Virus record (IMG/VR): IMGVR_UViG_3300025666_000002
Coordinates: 62,001 to 126,000 of that record
Strand: one strand, 5' to 3'
Length of the DNA stretch: 64,000 nt
DNA from: a virus
Under the pieces are notes generated by a model. It had not been told where the DNA came from and did no database searches. It saw nothing but the letters and a program-made list of their open reading frames with translations. A program made the position numbers and the translations under genes. Of this stretch, positions 33,559 to 60,860 are shown in pieces. How positions within the stretch are numbered: the stretch's first letter is position 1; each line of letters begins with the position of its first letter.

Positions 33559-33864
33559 CTAATCAAATAATATTTTTACGCTTAACACAGCTGTGCCTTT
33601 GATTACTCTGTGGATAGTTCCAGCTGGGATATTAATATCCACACCTGTTAGCATTGGAATTGGCATTTCATTGTCATACTGAAAGCGCCAGTCATTGTCT
33701 TCAAGAACCTCTATTGTTCGGTCCTCTTCATCCCAGTGCCATTTGAATAAGTGTTCCGGGTAGCTTGAATCAAAATGACGCATGATATAACCATCGTAGC
33801 GCTCTTCAGTAAAGGGTTTACGCTGGTCTTCAATCATCTCTATCATTTCTTCGTGCGTTACCAT
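33559..33864 (-). CDS. Small cupin-like protein
   Basis: At 101 residues the C-terminal half shows a cupin strand pattern (VDINIPAGTIHRVIKGTAVL) with the Pro-x-Gly-x-x-His core; a HFDSSYPEHLFKWHWDEE segment could supply the first motif. A metal-dependent role or a non-catalytic sugar-binding role is possible. It overlaps the next upstream gene by 7 bases. Confidence 0.6.
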   Translation of the reverse strand: MVTHEEMIEMIEDQRKPFTEERYDGYIMRHFDSSYPEHLFKWHWDEEDRTIEVLEDNDWRFQYDNEMPIPMLTGVDINIPAGTIHRVIKGTAVLSVKILFD

Positions 33865-34397
33865 GGTTGATCTGATTTAAGCCCTAGTTGTTTGCCAAAA
33901 AGTGTTGGCCCATAACAAGCCCAGAAGCCGGCTTTATTAGGATCTTGTTTAGCTTTAGTGTCACATTTATGTCTTGCCCAGAATGAAGCCGCTGCCCCAG
34001 GGTCATCATTCTTAACTGCAAGTTTCGGGTCTCCCCATTCAATCTTCTTAGCTAGAATATTACCGTCTTCATCAGTTCGACCAGTGTTACGATAGACAAT
34101 AAACTTCTTATTGCCACCACGTTCTGGTGAATCCAGTTTAACCTTCTTGGCCTTACCGCCACGTTCTTTATAGACTGCTGGCTTACCAACTTCAAGGTTT
34201 TTAGCCATCCAACCGCTTGGACCTTTAAGAATGATGTTGCCTTTATCCCAGTACTCTTTTACCTCTTCAAAAAGTTTAGCATAGGCCTCACTGCCCAGTC
34301 TAAAGAATGAATTGGTTAAGTCAAGGTCCTCATCGATGTGAGCCTTTAGTTCTGGCGATACATTATTCCAATCCTCAAATGTCTTTATAAATTTCAT
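33858..34397 (-). CDS. 179-residue protein with tag-like N-terminus
   Basis: It begins MKFIKTFEDWNN, a weaker version of the shared N-terminal tag. The middle contains a positively charged GGKAKKVKL region, and the C-terminus has SFWARHKCDTKAK and FWACYGPTLFGKQLG, a Cys/Trp pattern seen in small phage proteins. It overlaps both neighbours by a few bases. Function unknown; possibly a packaged internal protein. Confidence 0.6.
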   Translation of the reverse strand: MKFIKTFEDWNNVSPELKAHIDEDLDLTNSFFRLGSEAYAKLFEEVKEYWDKGNIILKGPSGWMAKNLEVGKPAVYKERGGKAKKVKLDSPERGGNKKFIVYRNTGRTDEDGNILAKKIEWGDPKLAVKNDDPGAAASFWARHKCDTKAKQDPNKAGFWACYGPTLFGKQLGLKSDQPW

Positions 34398-35314
34398 AGT
34401 TCTTTTATTCCAGTTTTGTAATCTTGTTTATGTCCATACATCACTGGAAACTCTTTCTCTAGTTCATAGCCCATCTTCTCCCAAAACTTGATTGATTTCT
34501 TATATGCATCAATCTCTACATATTTAGCACCTTGTTCTTTAGCCCATCTTTCAAAGTCAGCAACCGCCTTTGAGCCAATTCCACCACCTCTTTGTGCAGC
34601 TTTAACTTCAATGTGGTTTAACTTAGCCTTATCGCCTTCAACGTAGCCGGTAATCTTAACACCATCAAAACCTGGATAATAATTTGACTCATTTAAAGAC
34701 TCATCCATCTTGTCAATTAGATCTTCTCTACCAAGTTGCTTATAAACCTCTTTGCGAGTCTTCTGCATCTTCTCAGCGTAGTCTGGATCGTCGTTGCGAT
34801 TAAAGACGTATTGTTGAGTTAATGAACCACTAATCTTCTTAACATCCTTCTTGCGAGTCTTAATTAGCCAAGCAGCTAGATCCTTAATAGAAAGATCTCT
34901 GAAGCGACCTTCAGCATCCGGTGCATCTGAGTGATGAAAGTCCGGTGCGCCTTTCGGCTTCTTCTCGGTAACAAATTCTTCAAAGAGCTTTACAAATTTC
35001 ATATCTTCGTTGGTTGCTCTTTCTTTTTTCTTAGCAGCCTTAATTTTATTCTTTAAGATTTCAGCCTCTTTGCGCATAACCAATTCTTGTGCCTTTGCTG
35101 AAGACTGACGTAGTTGCACCTTAGCTAGTGAAGCCTTCATCTTATCAGAAGGTTCCGGAGAATCAGCAAGCTCTTTGGCTGTTTTAACTAAATCTTCTTG
35201 TTTGCCAACAGTCTTCTTAATCTTCTTGTCAATCTTCTTGACCTTAGACTTAATTGAATTCTTCTTGTTCTTCTTCTCGTTTAAGAAATCATTATATGTT
35301 GTATTGATCTTCAT
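34394..35314 (-). CDS. Double-tagged protein with C-terminal GNAT acetyltransferase
   Basis: The 306-residue protein begins with the tag MKINTTYNDFLNEK, followed by a Lys-rich helical domain. At residue 105 (base 35002) a second tag MKFVKLFEEFVTEK appears, then a helical region, and from about residue 210 a GNAT fold (RGGGIGSKAVADFERWA, the acetyl-CoA loop, and FWEKMGYELEKEF). The layout looks like two tagged genes fused end to end. If the tag directs packaging, it could be cut by a prohead protease into separate pieces. Acetylation target unknown. Confidence 0.65.
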   Translation of the reverse strand: MKINTTYNDFLNEKKNKKNSIKSKVKKIDKKIKKTVGKQEDLVKTAKELADSPEPSDKMKASLAKVQLRQSSAKAQELVMRKEAEILKNKIKAAKKKERATNEDMKFVKLFEEFVTEKKPKGAPDFHHSDAPDAEGRFRDLSIKDLAAWLIKTRKKDVKKISGSLTQQYVFNRNDDPDYAEKMQKTRKEVYKQLGREDLIDKMDESLNESNYYPGFDGVKITGYVEGDKAKLNHIEVKAAQRGGGIGSKAVADFERWAKEQGAKYVEIDAYKKSIKFWEKMGYELEKEFPVMYGHKQDYKTGIKEL

Positions 35315-36036
35315 TAGAATTTACCAATGCCACCTATTTTTTGTGCTCTTCTGCGCCAAAGGTCTAAAACTTCAGCTCTTGTTTCATTATCTATCACATC
35401 TTGTTCTTGTTGAACGTCTAAATATCTGTTAATAGCATCTGCAATCGACTCTTTACGTTTCTTAGCCTCATACCTTAAGCCTTGTAGATTAGCATCTACT
35501 TCTTTTGGTAGCATCAAGTAATGATACTTTGGTAAGAAGCCCATTTTAATCAAGGCTCGCATTTCAGAGTCATCTTCATCTGGTTTGCCCATTCTGTAGT
35601 TTCCGACACTTTTACCGTCTTGGGTAATATGTTCCATCTCGTGGCGCATTACGTCGGCAAGGTGCATATAGACCGTTTGCCATTCGCCAGGCAGCCACTC
35701 ATCGTTGATTGCAAAGTCAATTAAGATATAAGGATCCTGATCCACTAGATCGCCTTCATCATCGTAATACTCATCTCTACCGTCAGCGCCAGTTGAATCT
35801 AAGACTTCAAAGCCTTTTATCTGCTGACCTTCAACGTCACCAAAGTAGATCGTTGAAGTAAGATCAAAGATTAGTCCACGCTCTTCAACGCTTAGCATAA
35901 AGGTCGATAGCTTCTTGCCACTCTTCCAGTCTTTAATCCACTTCTTAAAGTTTTGGCTCACGAGTTTATTGGCTAAGCCATCGTACTTGCTTCTGCCTTC
36001 GTTGATAAAATCATTATAAGTCTCTATATGCCTCAT
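35314..36036 (-). CDS. Tagged HExxH metalloprotease-like protein
   Basis: The 240-residue protein starts MRHIETYNDFINEG, a close match to the capsid-targeting-like tag including a possible cut after Glu. Residues 125-150 contain LADVMRHEMEHITQDG, an HExxH zinc motif, and a glutamate-rich helix with EVDANLQGLRYEA follows about 55 residues later and could give the third ligand. It may be an injected peptidase or a structural zincin. A one-base overlap couples it to the GNAT fusion. Confidence 0.6.
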   Translation of the reverse strand: MRHIETYNDFINEGRSKYDGLANKLVSQNFKKWIKDWKSGKKLSTFMLSVEERGLIFDLTSTIYFGDVEGQQIKGFEVLDSTGADGRDEYYDDEGDLVDQDPYILIDFAINDEWLPGEWQTVYMHLADVMRHEMEHITQDGKSVGNYRMGKPDEDDSEMRALIKMGFLPKYHYLMLPKEVDANLQGLRYEAKKRKESIADAINRYLDVQQEQDVIDNETRAEVLDLWRRRAQKIGGIGKF

Positions 36037-39584: not shown

Positions 39585-41030
39585 TTACGCTTTAATGTTT
39601 TTATACCTTTCGCCCATGATTGTTTCATCCATGATACTAGCTGGCGTAAACTCTTCAGCTGCTATAACCGAAGTCATAATTGCTGGTGAGAATCCACTGA
39701 TCAGCGCAGTACCTTGCTTGTCAAATCTAACTGGAGACTGACCATTTCTAGACTGAATGTTCCAGTATACGATCTTTGGCATTTTATAACCAGCGTCATT
39801 GTACATTTTCTCAATCATTTGTTGAGCAGTTGGGTTCCATTCAGCAGTATTGTCATTTCTGCCCCAGTAACCTCTAGTTGAAGTTGCTTCGTCAAACTCC
39901 ATATCTGATAGGATCAAGATCTTATCAGGCATTTGGTCTTGTGAGACGCTGTGCTTTACAGCCTGGTCTAGGACTTGCTTAAAGGCTGCTTCAAGGTTAG
40001 TGTTCATTGCCCACTCTGATCGGCTTAACTGTTGGAATCTGTCTTTCAAGCTTCCAGTCAAGATCTGTAATTCTGGCTTACCGCTGAAAGTTAAGAACGC
40101 ATCTTTAAAAGGACCCACATTCTTTTCAGAAATATAGAGACCTAATGAAACTGCAACATCCATACAAGTTACGTTTGGATTACCGCCAGCTGGAGTATTC
40201 ATTGAACCTGAAACGTCTACCATTGGCAAGATCATTTCGTTGGCTCCTTCCATCCAGTTTGGTAGTGCTTTCCACTGCTCGGTCGCAACGTCAGCGTTTC
40301 CTCTGTGCAGAGACTTAGTAATATCGTAAGGATAAACTGCACCAGCATTGATCTTAGCCTCACCTTTTTGCAGTTTACCAATGTAGGCCTCGTATTGATC
40401 CTTAGCATTCTTCCAGAACGCTTTTTGATAACGAGCACCTGCAACTGAAGGCAGTTTAGAGAAGTCAATGTCTTCCCACTTCTTAGCACACATTAGCTGC
40501 TCAACTACGTTAGTTAGACTAACCAGAACCTTACGGTAAAGCTTTGGCGTTAAGCCCATATGATTACGTAACTTAGCTGCAGTAACTCCTTTACGTGGCA
40601 TCCACTTTGCACACAGTCCATTTTGATCTTCAAGAAGAGCCTTTTGAATTAGGTTAAAAGCATCCGCTTGTAATTTAGTGTCCTCAAGGACTAGAAGGTC
40701 ATCCCAACGTCCGAATTCTGGAATTAGGTTGAGGTTTATCTTCAAGGCTTCTGGATGAGACTCCAACAAGTAGCCCATAATATCACGGAAGATTTGACGC
40801 TCTCCAGCTCCACCGCGAACATCACGAGCCCAGAACAAGATTTTCATTGCTCGAGTCGGATCTTGGTAAAATGCCTTTGAGAAAGTTGCGATTAAACGAT
40901 CTTTGTCTTGACCGCGCATAGCACCTATATTAAAGAATAGGTCTACAACTGCGCTTAAAGAGCTACTGTTGGTTGCCATGCCATTTTCAGTCAAACAGTC
41001 CTCTTGACGAAGTGCGTCTACTAGTTTCAT
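39585..41030 (-). CDS. TROVE/Ro60-like protein with vWA domain (DUF2828-type)
   Basis: The 481-residue protein has an N-terminal alpha-helical HEAT-like region with ILFWARDVRGGAGERQIFR (about residues 63-81) and LIPEFGRWDDLLVL. This resembles the Ro60/TROVE and DUF2828 families. From about residue 260 it has a von Willebrand A domain with a MIDAS motif DVSGSMN, then LILSDMEFD. Ro proteins bind Y RNAs and structured or misfolded RNA. It could form an RNP with the RNA-like region directly downstream. Family membership is clear; RNA binding is inference. Confidence 0.75.
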   Translation of the reverse strand: MKLVDALRQEDCLTENGMATNSSSLSAVVDLFFNIGAMRGQDKDRLIATFSKAFYQDPTRAMKILFWARDVRGGAGERQIFRDIMGYLLESHPEALKINLNLIPEFGRWDDLLVLEDTKLQADAFNLIQKALLEDQNGLCAKWMPRKGVTAAKLRNHMGLTPKLYRKVLVSLTNVVEQLMCAKKWEDIDFSKLPSVAGARYQKAFWKNAKDQYEAYIGKLQKGEAKINAGAVYPYDITKSLHRGNADVATEQWKALPNWMEGANEMILPMVDVSGSMNTPAGGNPNVTCMDVAVSLGLYISEKNVGPFKDAFLTFSGKPELQILTGSLKDRFQQLSRSEWAMNTNLEAAFKQVLDQAVKHSVSQDQMPDKILILSDMEFDEATSTRGYWGRNDNTAEWNPTAQQMIEKMYNDAGYKMPKIVYWNIQSRNGQSPVRFDKQGTALISGFSPAIMTSVIAAEEFTPASIMDETIMGERYKNIKA

Positions 41031-43623: not shown

Positions 43624-44502
43624 CTAGTAACTCCAGTCTGCAGCAACGCTTAATTCTAAGCCATGTTTATCTGTAAATTTCTGAAGTGCGTCGATAATTT
43701 TTGACTGTAACTTCTCGAACTTAGTGTATTCTTTGCTCATTGTTGCATCACTACCATACTCATCTGGATGTCTATACTGTCTAGGCTCATCTATTTTCAT
43801 ACGAACCTCTCCGTGTTTCATAACTAGAGTAGGTTGTCTTGTATCAATACCCAGCTTTCTGGCTATGTCCTTCATTGCATAGTAGTCCTTGCTAACTTTA
43901 TCACTTAAAGTATTGAATTGCTTTTCAATTGCAGCTCTATTCTTAGCAATCTTCTTAGCCTCTCTTGGATTAAACGGAGCACCATGTTTCTTCTCATATT
44001 CGGCAAATATTTTTACAATATCTTCTAGCATTTCATCGTGCTTTGAAATTGCTTTATATGTACCGTATGTTACATATTTCTCAATTGGTTTTCCACCGTT
44101 TGGATTTGGTAATCCTTCGAAGTAGTGGCCTACAGAATATCCTGGACCTCGTGTACTATCACCTGAAGTATATGAAAGAGGAGCATCTTTGTAAGTAGTT
44201 GTGCCCATACCAACAACACCAATACTTAGGACTAGGTTACCTCCATAGTTCCATTCTGATCTATAGACTGAAACCTCAAGTCTAACTGGTAGTGCTTTCT
44301 TTAAGAATTTAACAGCCTTAATACCTTTACCAAAGTTTAGGTTAGATTTAAGAGCTTGTTTTGCCTCTGGTGAGTTCTTAATTCTCTTTAAGAAGTCACT
44401 TGCTGACATCTTTTCATGTTGATTGAAAAGCGGCTCGTTGTTAATTTTATCGAAGATAAACTCTTCGTTTACGAATTGTTCGTATAGTCCTACTTTCTTC
44501 AC
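43624..44502 (-). CDS. Tagged 292-residue protein of unknown function
   Basis: It begins MKKVGLYEQFVNEEF, one of the best copies of the capsid-targeting-like tag, with a possible cut after VNE. The body is Lys/Gly/Tyr-rich with a Gly-rich strand region (GNLVLSIGVVGMGTTTY) and a helical middle. No enzyme motif recognised. It is coupled to the upstream coiled-coil gene by a 4-base overlap and ends at the terminator. Confidence 0.65.
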   Translation of the reverse strand: MKKVGLYEQFVNEEFIFDKINNEPLFNQHEKMSASDFLKRIKNSPEAKQALKSNLNFGKGIKAVKFLKKALPVRLEVSVYRSEWNYGGNLVLSIGVVGMGTTTYKDAPLSYTSGDSTRGPGYSVGHYFEGLPNPNGGKPIEKYVTYGTYKAISKHDEMLEDIVKIFAEYEKKHGAPFNPREAKKIAKNRAAIEKQFNTLSDKVSKDYYAMKDIARKLGIDTRQPTLVMKHGEVRMKIDEPRQYRHPDEYGSDATMSKEYTKFEKLQSKIIDALQKFTDKHGLELSVAADWSY

Positions 44503-44750
44503 AGTATTGTTCTTTTTATTTTGTTGATATTTATATCGATTTTAGCTATTTCTTTTTGAAACTGAATCTTTTGTAAAGTTAAGGCGTTAATCTCTTGCTT
44601 GTATGCATCTTCTTCATCTCTATTTTTAACACTAAGATCATCATACTTGTTGGCAAGGTCTCCTATCTTATCTTTAAGGTCCTTAATTTTAGAGTTGTAT
44701 TCTGCCTTGGTTGCTTTTTCAAATAGCTCAAAAGATTTTACGTGTTTCAT
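44499..44750 (-). CDS. Tagged coiled-coil protein
   Basis: An 83-residue protein starting MKHVKSFELFEKA (tag variant), then one continuous heptad coiled coil to the end. Possible internal or scaffold protein. Confidence 0.6.
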   Translation of the reverse strand: MKHVKSFELFEKATKAEYNSKIKDLKDKIGDLANKYDDLSVKNRDEEDAYKQEINALTLQKIQFQKEIAKIDININKIKRTIL

Positions 44751-45574: not shown

Positions 45575-46729
45575 TCATATTGTTTTTTTGTATTTTTCAG
45601 CCTCTATTTCTTTAATCTTTTGCGCAATTTGTGGTCCCTTAACGCCAAACTCTCGCATTACCCAATTACCATCGGTTGTTGGTTTGTACTTTAAGAAGGC
45701 CTTAATTTGCTTCAGATCTAATCTATTTATCTTCGCAAACTGTGTAATTACATCCTTGTCAACCTTGGTGGTCACCCACTGCTTGTAAAGGTCAAACACA
45801 TTTTCAGGCTTAAGGTCCCTCAGGTTCTTTAGAAAGACCACAGCATTAACCTCGTCTGACGTAAAAGTCATCCTATTCATCTCCTTCTTAATCATATCGT
45901 TTGAGTTCATATCAAACAGGTGAGTCAATTGAATAGGCCAAGTGTTAGTATTGACAAAATTGGTTGAAATTACAAGATTTGGAAACATAATATCCCATAG
46001 ACTAAAGTGACTAACCATATTTAAGTAGTCGACTGGCTTCTTTGCAGATTCAATTGACTTCTTAAACTCATCACGAATCCTTTCAGGGCTAACACCTTCC
46101 AGGCTATTGTCGGTCAAGATAGCATCTGCCGTCTCCTTCTCTAGTTTAGAACCAGTCCTGCCTGCAAATCTGAGTGCTCTCAGCTTTCTTAATGGATCTT
46201 CAGCAAATCGATCAGCAGCAGCGCCAACAGTTCGAATCTTCTGGTCCTGGATGTCTTTTAATCCTCCAACCAGGTCAACAATCTCGCCTCTACCAATATC
46301 GTAAAAGAGAGCGTTGATTGTTAAGTCTCGTCTAAGAACATCCTTGTCGATGGTTGAGTATTTTACAGCATCTGGTCTGCGACCTCCTGAAAGGTCCTCT
46401 CTAAACGTGGCAATCTCAACTCCATTCTTATCTGAAGGTATTTGCACAATCACAACACCAAACTGCTGCCCAACCTCTCCAATCGTAGAGTAACCAGCCC
46501 CTTGGACCATGTTAACCACCTCTTCTGGAAAGGCATCAGTTGCAAGGTCAAAATCCTTAGGCTTTTTACCCATGATTGCATCTCTGACAGCACCGCCAAC
46601 AATATAGAGCTCCTTACCATTCTTTTGGAATAGTTTATGTAGGTCTATAATATCTGAAGGCACATTGAGCCTAAGTGAGCTCTGTGCCTCGTTGACCATT
46701 TGGAATTCTGTAAATGTTTTAAGTTGCAT
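45575..46729 (-). CDS. Tagged CCA-adding tRNA nucleotidyltransferase
   Basis: The 384-residue protein starts MQLKTFTEFQMVNEA, a capsid-targeting-like tag placed in front of a complete class II CCA/poly(A) polymerase head. It has GGAVRD at 45-50, catalytic DFD at 59-61 and a conserved RRDLTINAL near 133. It also has the DRFAEDPLRKLRALRFAGR segment near 165-185. The C-terminal part is shortened relative to cellular enzymes. It would restore tRNA 3' CCA ends. The tag suggests packaging in the capsid and delivery with the DNA. Enzyme call strong, packaging is inference. Confidence 0.85.
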   Translation of the reverse strand: MQLKTFTEFQMVNEAQSSLRLNVPSDIIDLHKLFQKNGKELYIVGGAVRDAIMGKKPKDFDLATDAFPEEVVNMVQGAGYSTIGEVGQQFGVVIVQIPSDKNGVEIATFREDLSGGRRPDAVKYSTIDKDVLRRDLTINALFYDIGRGEIVDLVGGLKDIQDQKIRTVGAAADRFAEDPLRKLRALRFAGRTGSKLEKETADAILTDNSLEGVSPERIRDEFKKSIESAKKPVDYLNMVSHFSLWDIMFPNLVISTNFVNTNTWPIQLTHLFDMNSNDMIKKEMNRMTFTSDEVNAVVFLKNLRDLKPENVFDLYKQWVTTKVDKDVITQFAKINRLDLKQIKAFLKYKPTTDGNWVMREFGVKGPQIAQKIKEIEAEKYKKTI

Positions 46730-48353: not shown

Positions 48354-48686
48354 TTATCTCAAAACTTCTACAAATCCAACTTTATTAATATCGTTGGATT
48401 CAACACGCATTACCAATCGATATACGAACGTTGATTCACTAACATTAGAACCCCACCATGTGCCATCCCAATATTGATTGGTATCTCTTGTTTCAAATAT
48501 AAGTTGACCATTACGTGTATAAACTTCTAACAGGTAATCTGAAACCGTCAATGTATCATCAAATATAGGTTTCCAATAATCATTCATCATATCACCATCA
48601 GGGGTGAATGCGTTTGGAATATGGACTTCTTGTGCGAATGCAGTTGCTCCAACAAACATTGCCGCTATTACTAATAACTTTTTCAT
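48354..48686 (-). CDS. Secreted stand-alone T9SS type B sorting-domain protein
   Basis: The 110-residue protein has a signal peptide (MKKLLVIAAMFVGATAFAQ) cut near residue 19. The rest is almost exactly one gliding-motility-associated C-terminal domain. It has IPNAFTPDGDMMNDYWKP, then LLEVYTRNGQLIFETRDTN, WDGTWWG, STFVYRLVM, and a final VGFVEVLR strand. In Bacteroidetes this domain sends cargo through the type IX secretion system; here no cargo is attached. It may occupy or block the translocon, or be displayed on the surface. Family recognition is strong; the effect is inferred. Confidence 0.8.
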   Translation of the reverse strand: MKKLLVIAAMFVGATAFAQEVHIPNAFTPDGDMMNDYWKPIFDDTLTVSDYLLEVYTRNGQLIFETRDTNQYWDGTWWGSNVSESTFVYRLVMRVESNDINKVGFVEVLR

Positions 48687-48688
48687 CT

Positions 48689-48913
48689 TTATTTACCGGT
48701 ATATCTGTTTACTTCATCAATACAAATGCAATTCTTTTCTCCGTAGATGTGGCCATTGGATGCTGATGTTCGAACCCAAATTTGTTCACCATTCTTATCT
48801 ACTTTATGAGTATTACAACTCCATTGCATACACGTTTTCTCACAAGAAGAAAACAAAACACAGGCCGTTAAAAATGTAACGAACCCTATAAAACCACATA
48901 CTAACTGTTTCAT
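48689..48913 (-). CDS. Small lipoprotein
   Basis: A 74-residue protein with a hydrophobic signal and a lipobox-like VLFSSC at about residue 20-25, followed by a Cys-rich outer part (CEKTCMQWSCNTH and NCICIDEV). It is coupled with the T9SS-domain gene, so the pair may act together at the host outer surface, for instance in superinfection exclusion. Confidence 0.65.
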   Translation of the reverse strand: MKQLVCGFIGFVTFLTACVLFSSCEKTCMQWSCNTHKVDKNGEQIWVRTSASNGHIYGEKNCICIDEVNRYTGK

Positions 48914-50181: not shown

Positions 50182-50513
50182 AATAATTGAATAGCGATTA
50201 GGCCAACCGATAGTGCGAGAGAAACTCCTGTTTTTGCAGTTATACCTTCACCCATGAAAATATATGTCATTACTGTAAAGATCAGGATTCCACTGGCAAA
50301 GCCAATAAAACGGCCAGGCCAAAGCATTCCATCGAAATGTTCAACTACTAGTCGGGTTGCCTGAATTAAGATGTAACTGATAATACCACCAAAAGCAAAA
50401 GAAACTAGCCATGGGTTCTTCTTAAACCATGGCCATACAAATTGACCATTCGTCTGTACCCAAATCAAGCCCTGGCCTAAGAAGAAGAGCAGGAAGCCTA
50501 AGAGCAGATTCAA
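50172..50513 (-). CDS. Four-helix membrane protein
   Basis: 113 residues with four hydrophobic segments, beginning MNLLLGFLLFFLGQG. It has the size of small transporter-like or holin-like proteins, but no motif permits a call. It overlaps RNase HII by 4 bases. Confidence 0.55.
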   Translation of the reverse strand: MNLLLGFLLFFLGQGLIWVQTNGQFVWPWFKKNPWLVSFAFGGIISYILIQATRLVVEHFDGMLWPGRFIGFASGILIFTVMTYIFMGEGITAKTGVSLALSVGLIAIQLFWK

Positions 50514-51142
50514 AACAGATTAGTTGTTTTAGTCAACATGTGACTGATGAATGAATGTCTGTGCATTGGTGTAGCGCCCTCGTTAACGATTGCGTCTCTG
50601 TGTTGTTTGGTACCGTAGCCTTTATTACTACCCCAGCCAAATGCTGCATACTCCTCCATCTGGCTCAAATCTCGCATGTAATTATCACGTTCGGTCTTTG
50701 CTAGAATCGAAGCTGCTGCAATACTAACGTATATGTTGTCTCCGCCAACGATGGTTCCGAAAGGTATACCATTGTACCCATGGAACTGATCCCCATCAAC
50801 CAGAATGAACTGGAACTCGTTTTCTTCGGCTATTTTATCAAGGCATTGCTTCATACCGTTCAGAGTCGCTTTCAGTATGTTTGTGGACTCGATTTCCTCT
50901 ACTGGAATATGAACTATTGAATATGCAAGTGCGTTGTCCAGAACTAGCCTACGAGCTTCTACCTTCTGTCCTTCAGAAAGTAACTTTGAGTCTTTAATCA
51001 ACTCATGTTGAAAACCATGTGGCATAATACACGCAGCAACGGTAACTGGGCCTGCAAGTGCGCCTCTGCCAGCCTCGTCGAGGCCAACCTCTGTTATGTC
51101 GAGGTCGTTCATATGGCTTGATTTTAGTAGGATCTGCTTCAT
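50510..51142 (-). CDS. rnhB: Ribonuclease HII
   Basis: A 210-residue protein with the RNase HII pattern: VGLDEAGRGALAGPV (catalytic Asp-Glu, about 19-33), DSKLLSE (about 56), LVDGDQF (about 118) and a conserved KTERDNYM helix (about 148). It removes RNA primers or embedded ribonucleotides. The Met at residue 11 is an alternative start. Usual length for the family. Confidence 0.9.
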   Translation of the reverse strand: MKQILLKSSHMNDLDITEVGLDEAGRGALAGPVTVAACIMPHGFQHELIKDSKLLSEGQKVEARRLVLDNALAYSIVHIPVEEIESTNILKATLNGMKQCLDKIAEENEFQFILVDGDQFHGYNGIPFGTIVGGDNIYVSIAAASILAKTERDNYMRDLSQMEEYAAFGWGSNKGYGTKQHRDAIVNEGATPMHRHSFISHMLTKTTNLF

Positions 51143-53965: not shown

Positions 53966-54174
53966 TGGCTTTTAAAGTTTGGTCTAACTTTTATTACCTT
54001 GTCTTCGTTAATCGGCATGTCTTCACGAAGATCGCTGCGTAGTTTCTTTTCCTGTAGCTTACTAACTTTCTCGTCACGCTTAAGCTTCTTCTCTTCAATT
54101 ACATTTTGTTTATCAAGAGCATCTGCAATGCGTTTAAGTTGAGCTGCTATATCTTTAGCTGTCTTTTCTTCCAT
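53962..54174 (-). CDS. Small charged coiled-coil protein
   Basis: 70 residues, almost all charged, with AKDIAAQLKRIADALDKQN near the N-terminus and a Lys/Glu coiled coil. It overlaps both neighbours by a few bases. Function unknown. Confidence 0.6.
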   Translation of the reverse strand: MEEKTAKDIAAQLKRIADALDKQNVIEEKKLKRDEKVSKLQEKKLRSDLREDMPINEDKVIKVRPNFKSQ

Positions 54175-54817
54175 GTCTATTCTTTATTAGATCTGAGTCT
54201 CCGTTTTGAAAGTCTTGGTATGGTAATGACTTATCTTTCTGGCCTTGTTGTGGCCCATTTATCATTATAACATCCTTATGTGGATTTGTTTCACCGATCC
54301 TGCTTCTAAGCCAGTCGTCAAGGTCTTGGATTGAGCCTTGGAAATGTCTGATCTTCATCAGTCTATCGTCTTCATCTTTAAGGTCTGCTCTGGCTTCGGT
54401 TTCATCTACTTTATAGACTCTCTTGATAAATGCATTGATGTCCTTCTTGTCGTAGCCAAGCAGATCACCAACGTATCTTGCCTCTTCTGGCGTATCATCA
54501 CTTAAATACCCACCCTTCTTCTCTGCATAGTCTGCAAGTTTCTGAGCAGCCTTCTTGTTGTTCTTGTACATTACCCAAGCCCTACCATCAGGTTTACCTT
54601 TAACTTCAATTGCTTTAAGTCCATTATCTAGACCATGTTGCATTGCCTCTAGTTCACTCTCGTTATTAGGTCGATAAATCGGAGCATCCATTGTTGAAAT
54701 AAATGCAAGTTCTCTTTTACCGTCAATCACAGTCTGAACGCCTTCCATTGTATCGTAGGCTTCAGATGCTTTAATTTTTTCGGCAACAAATTGTTCAAAG
54801 AGTTTTATGTATTTCAT
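54155..54817 (-). CDS. Tagged 220-residue protein
   Basis: The start MKYIKLFEQFVAEK is a full capsid-targeting-like tag. The rest is charged alpha/beta with RIGETNPHKDVIMINGPQQG and an acidic C-terminal third; no enzyme motif is clear. It follows two further tagged genes, so three lie in a row. Confidence 0.65.
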   Translation of the reverse strand: MKYIKLFEQFVAEKIKASEAYDTMEGVQTVIDGKRELAFISTMDAPIYRPNNESELEAMQHGLDNGLKAIEVKGKPDGRAWVMYKNNKKAAQKLADYAEKKGGYLSDDTPEEARYVGDLLGYDKKDINAFIKRVYKVDETEARADLKDEDDRLMKIRHFQGSIQDLDDWLRSRIGETNPHKDVIMINGPQQGQKDKSLPYQDFQNGDSDLIKNRHGRKDS

Positions 54818-54821
54818 ATCT

Positions 54822-55079
54822 TTAATCGTTTTCTATAGTTGCGAGTTTTGTATAATATTTAGGATCCTCAAAAAGGTGATCTCTTGCTATTTCCATCGCT
54901 ACTTTTTTATCATTAGTATGTTCCATCTCAACTGAGATTCCTTTTTCATACTCAGTATCTAGTTCGTCTAGATCTACTTCATGTTTTTTAGCAATATCCT
55001 CTAATGACATATTCCCAGATATTCCTCCTGAAATTACTTCCTCATTAATAAATTCTTCAAATAGTTTTATATGTTTCAT
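54822..55079 (-). CDS. Tagged 85-residue protein
   Basis: It starts MKHIKLFEEFINEEV and is then an acidic helical protein with no motif. Nearly identical first 15 residues to both adjacent genes, with different bodies, show that the tag is modular. Confidence 0.65.
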   Translation of the reverse strand: MKHIKLFEEFINEEVISGGISGNMSLEDIAKKHEVDLDELDTEYEKGISVEMEHTNDKKVAMEIARDHLFEDPKYYTKLATIEND

Positions 55080-55081
55080 AG

Positions 55082-55585
55082 TTATTGTGATTTTTCAAGC
55101 TTCCATGATTTTACACTCTTCTTAGCATTAAAGATAATAAGAGCATCAAGATCTTCTTGAAAGTCTCGAGGGTCGTAATCGGAATAGATAGCTCCGGCAA
55201 ATCCGTTTTTAATTAATAGCTTGGTTCCGTCTAGTCCCATTACAATTTCAGCAGATGGATTACCAACAATTTCATTCACCCACTCGTCTGCATCTAATCC
55301 ATTATCTTGAAATAGTTTTTGGATTCTATCTTCAAAGACATCACAAATCTTTCCGATAATCTTCGCAGAATATTGATTGGCTCCTCCGTTTTCTATCATA
55401 TTAACATACCATCCATCGTCTGAATGTTCCTTCTCTAAGGCAAACCACATCGGTCTGGTATTAAGAGCCTTGATAGGTTCTCCAGCAACATGATATACTT
55501 TACCGGTTACTTTTTCATTTTTAATGTAAGGACTTTGATAGTTCTCTTCATTAACGAATTGTTCAAATAGTTTTATGTATTTCAT
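55082..55585 (-). CDS. Tagged 167-residue protein
   Basis: The ATG at 55585 (MKYIKLFEQFVNEE) is preferred over 55600 because it overlaps the metallothionein-like gene's stop in the ATGA form. The body contains a beta-rich VTGKVYHVAGEPIKALNTRP and acidic helices. It might bind nucleotides or act as an effector; no family recognised. Confidence 0.65.
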   Translation of the reverse strand: MKYIKLFEQFVNEENYQSPYIKNEKVTGKVYHVAGEPIKALNTRPMWFALEKEHSDDGWYVNMIENGGANQYSAKIIGKICDVFEDRIQKLFQDNGLDADEWVNEIVGNPSAEIVMGLDGTKLLIKNGFAGAIYSDYDPRDFQEDLDALIIFNAKKSVKSWKLEKSQ

Positions 55586-55701
55586 GATCCGTAGCAGCAA
55601 CCGTTTTTACAAGAGTCACAATCACACTGACAGTGGCATCCATTTGTAGTACAAGATTCGTTACAAGTACAGTTTTCGCATTCACAATTTTTACAAGCCA
55701 T
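55582..55701 (-). CDS. Cys-rich metallothionein-like microprotein
   Basis: A 39-residue protein with about a third Cys (CKNCECENCTCNESC, then CHCQCDCDSCKNGCC), matching metallothionein-type spacing. It starts 18 bases after a GATATATA box and overlaps the next tagged gene by 4 bases (ATGA). It may bind zinc or copper or a metal cluster. Too short to place in a family with certainty. Confidence 0.65.
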   Translation of the reverse strand: MACKNCECENCTCNESCTTNGCHCQCDCDSCKNGCCYGS

Positions 55702-59927: not shown

Positions 59928-60860
59928 TTATTCTTCGATTGAAAACCTCTTTGGGTCTGATTTTATTGTTTCTTTAATGTCTAAATCTATATACTCGTCT
60001 ACTTTAGCCTCAGCTTCTTTACTCAGTGGCTTACCGTAGTAGTCTTCGTACAGCTTCTTGTAATACAAGCCCATTACACCAAATGGAACTCCTGGTTCGC
60101 TAGACATTTCAACGATCCAAGGTTTATCATCTTGATCTACCATCACATCCATGGTGTAAATATCAAGATCGGTGTGTTTGTCATAGAACTCTTTAAAAAC
60201 ACTAAGCCAGCTCTCAGGTACCGACTTCTGCTTTAAGACATAGTTGAACTTTAACTTGTCGTCAGCTGCTTTAGTCATGTTCTTAGTATCATCGTTTGCA
60301 GCCACTCTCTGCACCCACATGATAGGTTCTCCACGCCAAACAAAGATTCTATGCTCTTCTTTAATATCGATCTTCTCGTTAAAGACTGTAAACTTAGTTA
60401 GGTCAGCCCCTTCACAATCCTCAAGTTTATCGAACTTGACAATGCCCAGTCCAGAATATCTGTTGTCGGGCTTTGCAATGATCGGAAACTTAAGTTGATC
60501 TAGATCTTTCGGATCTGAAACAGTCTTCGGTACATAGTCTGAATCCTCGTGTAACTCGTGCCACTCCTTCTTAGAAGCTACTCCCATCTTAGCGTCATAC
60601 TTATTGTAGATCAGCTTCTCGTCGTAGCCTGTTTTCGTTAGCCTTTCGGTGTGGATGTTACAGTAGTTCAAGACTGGACCTGAAACCGATTTCGGATCGT
60701 CATCTTTCGTAAAGATCTTAAAGTACTCTTTCACGTGATAACCTTCTAGATTGATATATCTATGGTCATGATTAGATTGCGCGACTGCACAAGTGATCTG
60801 CTTTAGCTCATCCTGTACTGCCTCTACAATAAAATCGTTATAAGTACTTACCTTCTTCAT
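59928..60860 (-). CDS. Tagged ATP-grasp enzyme
   Basis: The 310-residue protein begins MKKVSTYNDFIVEA, very close to the T4 internal-protein leader including Ala after Glu. The body shows an ATP-grasp fold: FPIIAKPDNRYSGLGIVKF (about 125-143, ATP-binding loop), EEHRIFVWRGEPIMWVQR (about 168-185) and YTMDVMVDQDDKPWIVEMSS (about 237-256). ATP-grasp enzymes ligate carboxylates to amines. Its tag suggests delivery in the virion. Substrate unknown. Confidence 0.75.
   Translation of the reverse strand: MKKVSTYNDFIVEAVQDELKQITCAVAQSNHDHRYINLEGYHVKEYFKIFTKDDDPKSVSGPVLNYCNIHTERLTKTGYDEKLIYNKYDAKMGVASKKEWHELHEDSDYVPKTVSDPKDLDQLKFPIIAKPDNRYSGLGIVKFDKLEDCEGADLTKFTVFNEKIDIKEEHRIFVWRGEPIMWVQRVAANDDTKNMTKAADDKLKFNYVLKQKSVPESWLSVFKEFYDKHTDLDIYTMDVMVDQDDKPWIVEMSSEPGVPFGVMGLYYKKLYEDYYGKPLSKEAEAKVDEYIDLDIKETIKSDPKRFSIEE

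What the first reader, a model, noticed from the sequence alone, without database searches (positions are those of the whole stretch)
48354..48686. Stand-alone T9SS type B sorting domain with signal peptide
A phage protein consisting of a signal peptide and almost only the gliding-motility C-terminal domain would enter the periplasm and dock at the type IX secretion translocon without cargo. It could jam T9SS, change receptor display or prevent superinfection. The neighbouring lipoprotein may be a partner.
Basis: partly seen in the sequence, partly recalled or inferred. Interest (0 to 1): 0.88.

Follow-up and report, generated by a model that had tools for sequence, protein, structure and literature searches.

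The report
Phage secretion signal without cargo
A large phage of Bacteroidota bacteria makes a tiny exported protein that is only the 'address label' of its host's type IX secretion system with nothing attached, always next to a small cysteine-rich lipoprotein; unrelated phages have arrived at the same label-only protein several times, which suggests that the label itself is the active agent.

Summary
[quoted passage not shown] The mature 91 aa hold no passenger. It is the only T9SS-targeted product found in the 140.8-kb contig.
New here: (1) six phage contigs share this naked CTD; dN/dS is about 0.11-0.13 against close relatives. (2) A small lipoprotein with an invariant C-x-C lies immediately upstream in all six, although the surrounding genes differ. 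(3) Label-only CTDs recur in four other phage lineages (two 635-642-kb megaphages, L030, L075). In L075 it equals a syntenic 513-550-aa adhesin with the passenger cleanly missing. (4) Only 1 of about 148 closest host CTDs is label-only. (5) No PorP/SprF shuttle was found in 26 phage records, so a host shuttle would have to be used.
Most likely mechanism (inferred, untested): the naked CTD occupies host PorP/SprF-like shuttles or the translocon, lowering display of T9SS adhesins that can serve as phage receptors (superinfection exclusion). The lipoprotein is a probable partner. Phage-encoded T9SS cargo is already published; the cargo-less form and its conserved lipoprotein pairing are a new variant.

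The parts
48354..48686 (-). Naked type B CTD protein, 110 aa
   Evidence: TIGR04131 and PF13585 above curated cut-offs
48633..48686 (-). Signal peptide, residues 1-18 (MKKLLVIAAMFVGATAFA, cleavage before Gln19)
   Evidence: inspection and hydropathy filter; no dedicated predictor run
48366..48626 (-). CHU_C / type B sorting domain, residues 21-107
   Evidence: AF2 model
48689..48913 (-). Small cysteine-rich lipoprotein, 74 aa, stop codon 2 bp upstream of the CTD start codon; C-terminal C-x-C
   Evidence: immediately upstream in six of six relatives
48845..48913 (-). Lipoprotein signal peptide, residues 1-23, lipobox LFSS-C24
   Evidence: inspection

Best explanation
The gene makes a secretion signal without a passenger. 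Step 1 (inferred from the signal peptide): Sec exports it to the periplasm. Step 2 (inferred from family membership): the intact type B CTD is taken up by a host PorP/SprF-like shuttle at the SprA translocon, because the phage brings no shuttle of its own. Step 3 (inferred): as there is no adhesin on it, and only 91 residues instead of the 150-235 reported for efficient type B secretion, it either stalls in the machine or sits on the shuttle at the cell surface as an empty cap. It thereby competes with SprB-like adhesins for export and anchoring. Step 4 (inferred): fewer T9SS adhesins or receptors are displayed, which would limit superinfection or re-adsorption to debris. The adjacent OM lipoprotein is expected to act in the same process. 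Shown here: domain identity, absence of passenger, selection on the naked form, the conserved two-gene pair, recurrent origin and absence of a phage shuttle. Not shown: every functional step.
For: Complete CTD above cut-offs with high-confidence fold. dN/dS 0.11-0.13 versus L003/L004, p=2.5e-5 and 2.4e-6 in a simple test against neutral proportions: the naked form is maintained, not decaying. Naked CTDs recur in five phage lineages; the state needs 5 changes on both trees, at least 3 forced by well-supported branches. In L075 the passenger is missing from a syntenic phage adhesin while signal peptide and CTD are kept. About 1 of 148 closest host CTDs is naked versus 5 of about 38 phage families, Fisher p=0.0015. 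No PorP_SprF in 26 phage records, while a host genome gave 13 with the same search. Lipoprotein-CTD pair kept together in changed contexts. Literature: type B CTDs need cognate shuttles and five motifs (PMC12618676), stay uncleaved and bind PorP/SprF at the surface (PMC9143113); F. columnare phage resistance goes with loss of gliding (PMC7345892); T5 Llp is a precedent for a small phage lipoprotein jamming an OM receptor (PMC9586334).
Against: No functional data. The host is unknown and its receptor may have nothing to do with T9SS. Shuttle-CTD pairing is specific in F. johnsoniae, so a 30-40% identical CTD may not fit a given shuttle. A bacterial chromosome also has a naked CTD (L081), so the form is not intrinsically anti-host. 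Several naked-CTD phages also encode long adhesins with the same type of CTD, which blocking T9SS would harm. Most related megaphages lack the domain, so it is accessory.
Confidence: 0.4

Rival explanations
1. Surface-display reading: the CTD is secreted normally and its own Ig-like domain, anchored on a host PorP/SprF barrel, is the functional surface molecule (masking, adhesion, or a coat on infected cells), with no interference with T9SS.
For: Type B CTDs stay uncleaved and anchored by PorP/SprF (PMC9143113); purifying selection on the domain itself; phages carry longer surface adhesins with similar CTDs.
Against: No extra residues beyond the sorting domain; 91 aa is shorter than the 150-235 aa reported for efficient type B secretion (PMC12618676).
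Confidence: 0.25
2. Periplasmic envelope pair: the CTD-like domain acts in the periplasm together with the lipoprotein (for example in lysis or envelope disruption), and T9SS is not involved.
For: Strict pairing with a lipoprotein in six of six relatives; in L004 the cassette lies near a peptidoglycan-binding, lysozyme-like ORF.
Against: All sorting-domain signature positions are kept; naked CTDs in L030, L075, L016 and L017 have no such lipoprotein next to them; no endolysin or spanin gene was recognised beside the pair in the window.
Confidence: 0.15
3. Relic: the passenger of a phage adhesin was lost and the remaining signal peptide plus CTD has no function.
For: L075 shows passenger absence relative to syntenic L084/L085, with somewhat higher dN/dS (0.21-0.34 against 0.14); L194 and L005 have diverged C-terminal halves.
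Against: dN/dS about 0.1 between window and L003/L004 at dS 0.2-0.3; the naked form spread to six contigs in different gene contexts; recurrent origin.
Confidence: 0.12
4. Artefact: host contamination or a truncated assembly.
For: None found.
Against: In-frame signal peptide and stop codon, phage genes on both sides, 100% identical context in two other contigs, no close bacterial homologue.
Confidence: 0.02

Closest known systems
T9SS type B sorting domain (TIGR04131 / PF13585 CHU_C), e.g. SprB of Flavobacterium johnsoniae, PG1035 of Porphyromonas gingivalis
   Same: Same domain above curated cut-offs, C-terminal, behind a Sec-type signal peptide
   Different: No passenger at all; no PorP/SprF-like gene nearby or in the phage records; far shorter than any characterised substrate
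Phage-encoded T9SS cargo: Cryophage (PMC7468147) and BACON-containing gut phages (PMC6949934)
   Same: Phage genes whose products carry host T9SS sorting domains; superinfection was already suggested there
   Different: Those have enzymatic or adhesive passengers (type A in Cryophage); here the sorting domain is the whole mature protein
T5 Llp / Cor superinfection-exclusion lipoproteins (PMC9586334)
   Same: Small phage lipoprotein at the OM with cysteines; jams an OM machine in the leading reading
   Different: Sequence relationship not tested; different host phylum; paired with a T9SS CTD; target unknown
SprF and PorG C-x-C tails that disulfide-bond GldK (PMC12635249)
   Same: Phage lipoproteins end with an invariant C-x-C (NCICID / NCECIE)
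   Different: No homology shown; the lipoprotein has two more conserved cysteines, so the motif may simply form internal disulfides

Membership tests
T9SS type B CTD (TIGR04131/PF13585) | Score above curated cut-off over most of the model | tested here: met
   49.4 bits vs 35 and 49.3 vs 27; positions 2-74/85 and 1-85/86
T9SS type B CTD (TIGR04131/PF13585) | Domain at the extreme C-terminus | tested here: met
   residues 21-107 of 110
T9SS type B CTD (TIGR04131/PF13585) | N-terminal Sec signal peptide | tested here: met
   inspection and hydropathy filter only
T9SS type B CTD (TIGR04131/PF13585) | Family-conserved residues (PNAFTP, N, R/G of NRWG, W-G of WDG, G of GxVTL) | tested here: met
   columns invariant or nearly so across naked and long phage CTDs include the window residues; exact motifs A-E of PMC12618676 are in a figure not held
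T9SS secreted substrate | Passenger domain upstream of the CTD | tested here: not met
   none
T9SS secreted substrate | Cognate PorP/SprF-like gene linked (usual, not universal) | tested here: not met
   none in 26 phage records; positive control 13 in G025; orphan type B substrates exist in F. johnsoniae
T9SS secreted substrate | Secretion through SprA | not testable with these tools
   needs experiment
T5 Llp-type superinfection-exclusion lipoprotein | Small phage lipoprotein with lipobox | tested here: met
   48689-48913, LFSS-C
T5 Llp-type superinfection-exclusion lipoprotein | Blocks an OM receptor | not testable with these tools
   needs experiment
T5 Llp-type superinfection-exclusion lipoprotein | Sequence homology to Llp/Cor | not tested
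   no Pfam or PHROGs match; direct comparison not made

The most novel reading that the evidence does not exclude
A two-gene phage anti-T9SS/anti-gliding module: the naked type B CTD saturates host PorP/SprF-like shuttles or the SprA translocon, while the OM lipoprotein, through its C-x-C tail, intercepts the GldK/PorK disulfide partner site or jams the OM machinery as T5 Llp does. It would be the first viral inhibitor of type IX secretion known to me, reached repeatedly by stripping the cargo from phage adhesins.
Probability: 0.15. Interest if true: 0.88.

Novelty: new variant of a known kind. Interest (0 to 1): 0.6.

Why it matters
Type IX secretion and gliding are central to Bacteroidota, yet I found no report of a natural inhibitor encoded by their phages in the library searched. 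A genetically encoded, cargo-less sorting signal would be a clean competitor to probe how type B CTDs engage shuttles, which has been hard to dissect because no type B CTD structure had been solved as of PMC12618676. If it blocks receptor display it would give Bacteroidota phages a superinfection-exclusion mechanism and make the idea of gliding machinery as phage receptor directly testable.

Tried and rejected
A virus-specific CTD clade seemed to appear in the first tree, but it vanished when the closest host CTDs were added, where phage and host sequences interleave; that claim is dropped. Apparent naked CTDs in host genomes G082 and G025 were a separate reading frame overlapping the end of an adhesin gene, and a contig edge; only L081 is a genuine one. 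Bacteroidetes promoter signatures are not enriched in the window. Closely related huge phages and Tenacibaculum phage pT24 have no CHU_C at the sensitivity used. The lipoprotein model is low confidence (pLDDT 74, the other four models about 50), so cysteine pairing cannot be read from it. No type A CTD in the window phage.

Full report
WHAT IS THERE. ORF 48354-48686(-) encodes 110 aa: MKKLLVIAAMFVGATAFA | QEVHIPNAFTPDGD...KVGFVEVLR. TIGR04131 (49.4 bits, cut-off 35) and PF13585 (49.3 bits, cut-off 27) cover residues 22-96 and 21-107. The mature protein is therefore just the sorting domain. AlphaFold2 gives a confident beta-rich fold (pLDDT 94, pTM 0.84). It matches phage gliding-motility C-terminal domains at TM 0.86-0.91, including a 108-aa marine phage protein annotated 'putative lyase' (TM 0.79) that is itself about domain-sized. 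The third PDB match is the T9SS protein PorZ, 5m11. No close bacterial homologue was found in GTDB-species contigs; the two hits are 31-41% identical CTDs of a Crocinitomicaceae MAG.

THE PHAGE. The window is 64 kb of a 140,787-bp viral contig. The baseplate wedge protein is nearest to huge phages and to phages of Prevotella, Tenacibaculum, Chryseobacterium and Flavobacterium, so a Bacteroidota host is likely; the genus is unknown. The naked CTD is the only type B CTD and there is no type A CTD in the contig.

THE PAIR. A 74-aa lipoprotein (lipobox LFSS-C) ends 2 bp upstream of the CTD start. Five IMG/VR contigs first found (L001-L005) and L194 each have a lipoprotein of this type immediately upstream of a naked CTD; L194 has another downstream and L004 two in tandem. 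The lipoproteins are very divergent (about 26-31% identity) but share the lipid cysteine, C-x4-C and C-x-C-I (the L004 row was cut one codon after the cysteine). Window, L001 and L002 share all neighbouring genes. L004, L005, L003 and L194 share with the window essentially only the CTD and, in L004 and L194, a significant lipoprotein match (one 66-aa stretch at 42% is the sole other hit, in L004). The two genes thus stay together while context changes.

SELECTION. Between window and L003/L004: 13-15 synonymous and 7 nonsynonymous changes over 69 and 261 sites, dN/dS 0.11-0.13, far from neutral proportions. L005 is diverged in its C-terminal half (dN/dS about 0.5).

RECURRENCE. Phage CTD proteins come as naked forms (about 107-133 aa), one-domain forms (about 187 aa) and long adhesins (400-1670 aa). 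Naked forms exist in megaphages LR745206 (L017) and LR756502 (L016), in L030, in L075 and in the window family. The two megaphages and L030 also encode long adhesins with such CTDs. L075 (113 aa) aligns to both ends of syntenic L084 (550 aa) and L085 (513 aa); flanking genes are about 69-99% identical. With three genomes, deletion rather than insertion of the passenger is only the more economical reading. On two trees the naked state needs 5 changes, at least 3 forced by well-supported branches.

HOST COMPARISON. In 296 Bacteroidota genomes the 150 closest CTDs listed include one genuine naked form (G042 = L081: signal peptide, short linker, CTD); two others touch contig edges. Against 5 of about 38 phage families, Fisher p=0.0015. 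Caveats: the phage set was seeded with a naked query, the phage total is a count of clusters, and host paralogues are not independent.

MECHANISM. [quoted passage not shown] efficient secretion was reported to need 150-235 residues (PMC12618676). They stay uncleaved and attached to PorP/SprF (PMC9143113). SprF forms its disulfide with GldK only once loaded with SprB (PMC12635249). A cargo-free CTD without its own shuttle (control) is thus best read as a competitor or cap for host shuttles, or a translocon jam. The benefit could be receptor removal: phage resistance in F. columnare accompanies loss of gliding, and receptors in the gliding machinery have been proposed (PMC7345892). T5 Llp shows that a small phage lipoprotein can jam an OM machine for superinfection exclusion (PMC9586334). 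The C-x-C tail of the lipoproteins recalls SprF/PorG, but this is a resemblance only. All functional steps are inference.

NOVELTY. Phage-borne T9SS cargo is published (PMC7468147, PMC6949934). I found no report of cargo-less CTDs, their recurrent origin, or the lipoprotein pair in the open-access library searched; absence there is not proof of novelty.

Noticed in passing
window 33858-34397, 34394-35314, 35314-36036, 43624-44502, 44499-44750, 45575-46729, 54155-54817, 54822-55079, 55082-55600, 59928-60860 (all -): Ten ORFs begin with a shared motif (MKxIKLFEQFVNE-like) that resembles, from memory, the T4 capsid-targeting sequence of internal head proteins; 11 pattern matches against 1.1 expected after residue shuffling. 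They include a CCA-adding tRNA nucleotidyltransferase, an ATP-grasp protein and a GNAT acetyltransferase: possibly enzymes packaged in the head and injected.
   Followed up: partly
L007 6381-8965: Huge phage LR745206 has several ORFs with the same type of N-terminal motif (MKYLKTFESI, MKYLKKYKAFE, MKHLKAFEEYE).
   Followed up: no
L075 10469-12757 and 6589-7278: The L075 phage also encodes a secreted subtilisin-like protease whose C-terminus resembles a type A T9SS tail and, by eye, a laminarinase-like (GH16) enzyme absent from the syntenic relatives L084/L085; TIGR04183 gives a further type A hit in this phage.
   Followed up: partly
L194 3513-3764, L198 2941-3144: Further divergent members of the C-x-C lipoprotein family; in the 176-kb relative of the window phage one copy (L198) stands without a CTD beside it.
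   Followed up: partly
window 39585-41030 (-): DUF2828/DUF7788 (VWA-like) protein with Pfam matches of 9e-36 and 2e-51, in a phage.
   Followed up: no
window 50510-51142 (-): Phage-encoded ribonuclease HII (PF01351, 1.5e-32).
   Followed up: no
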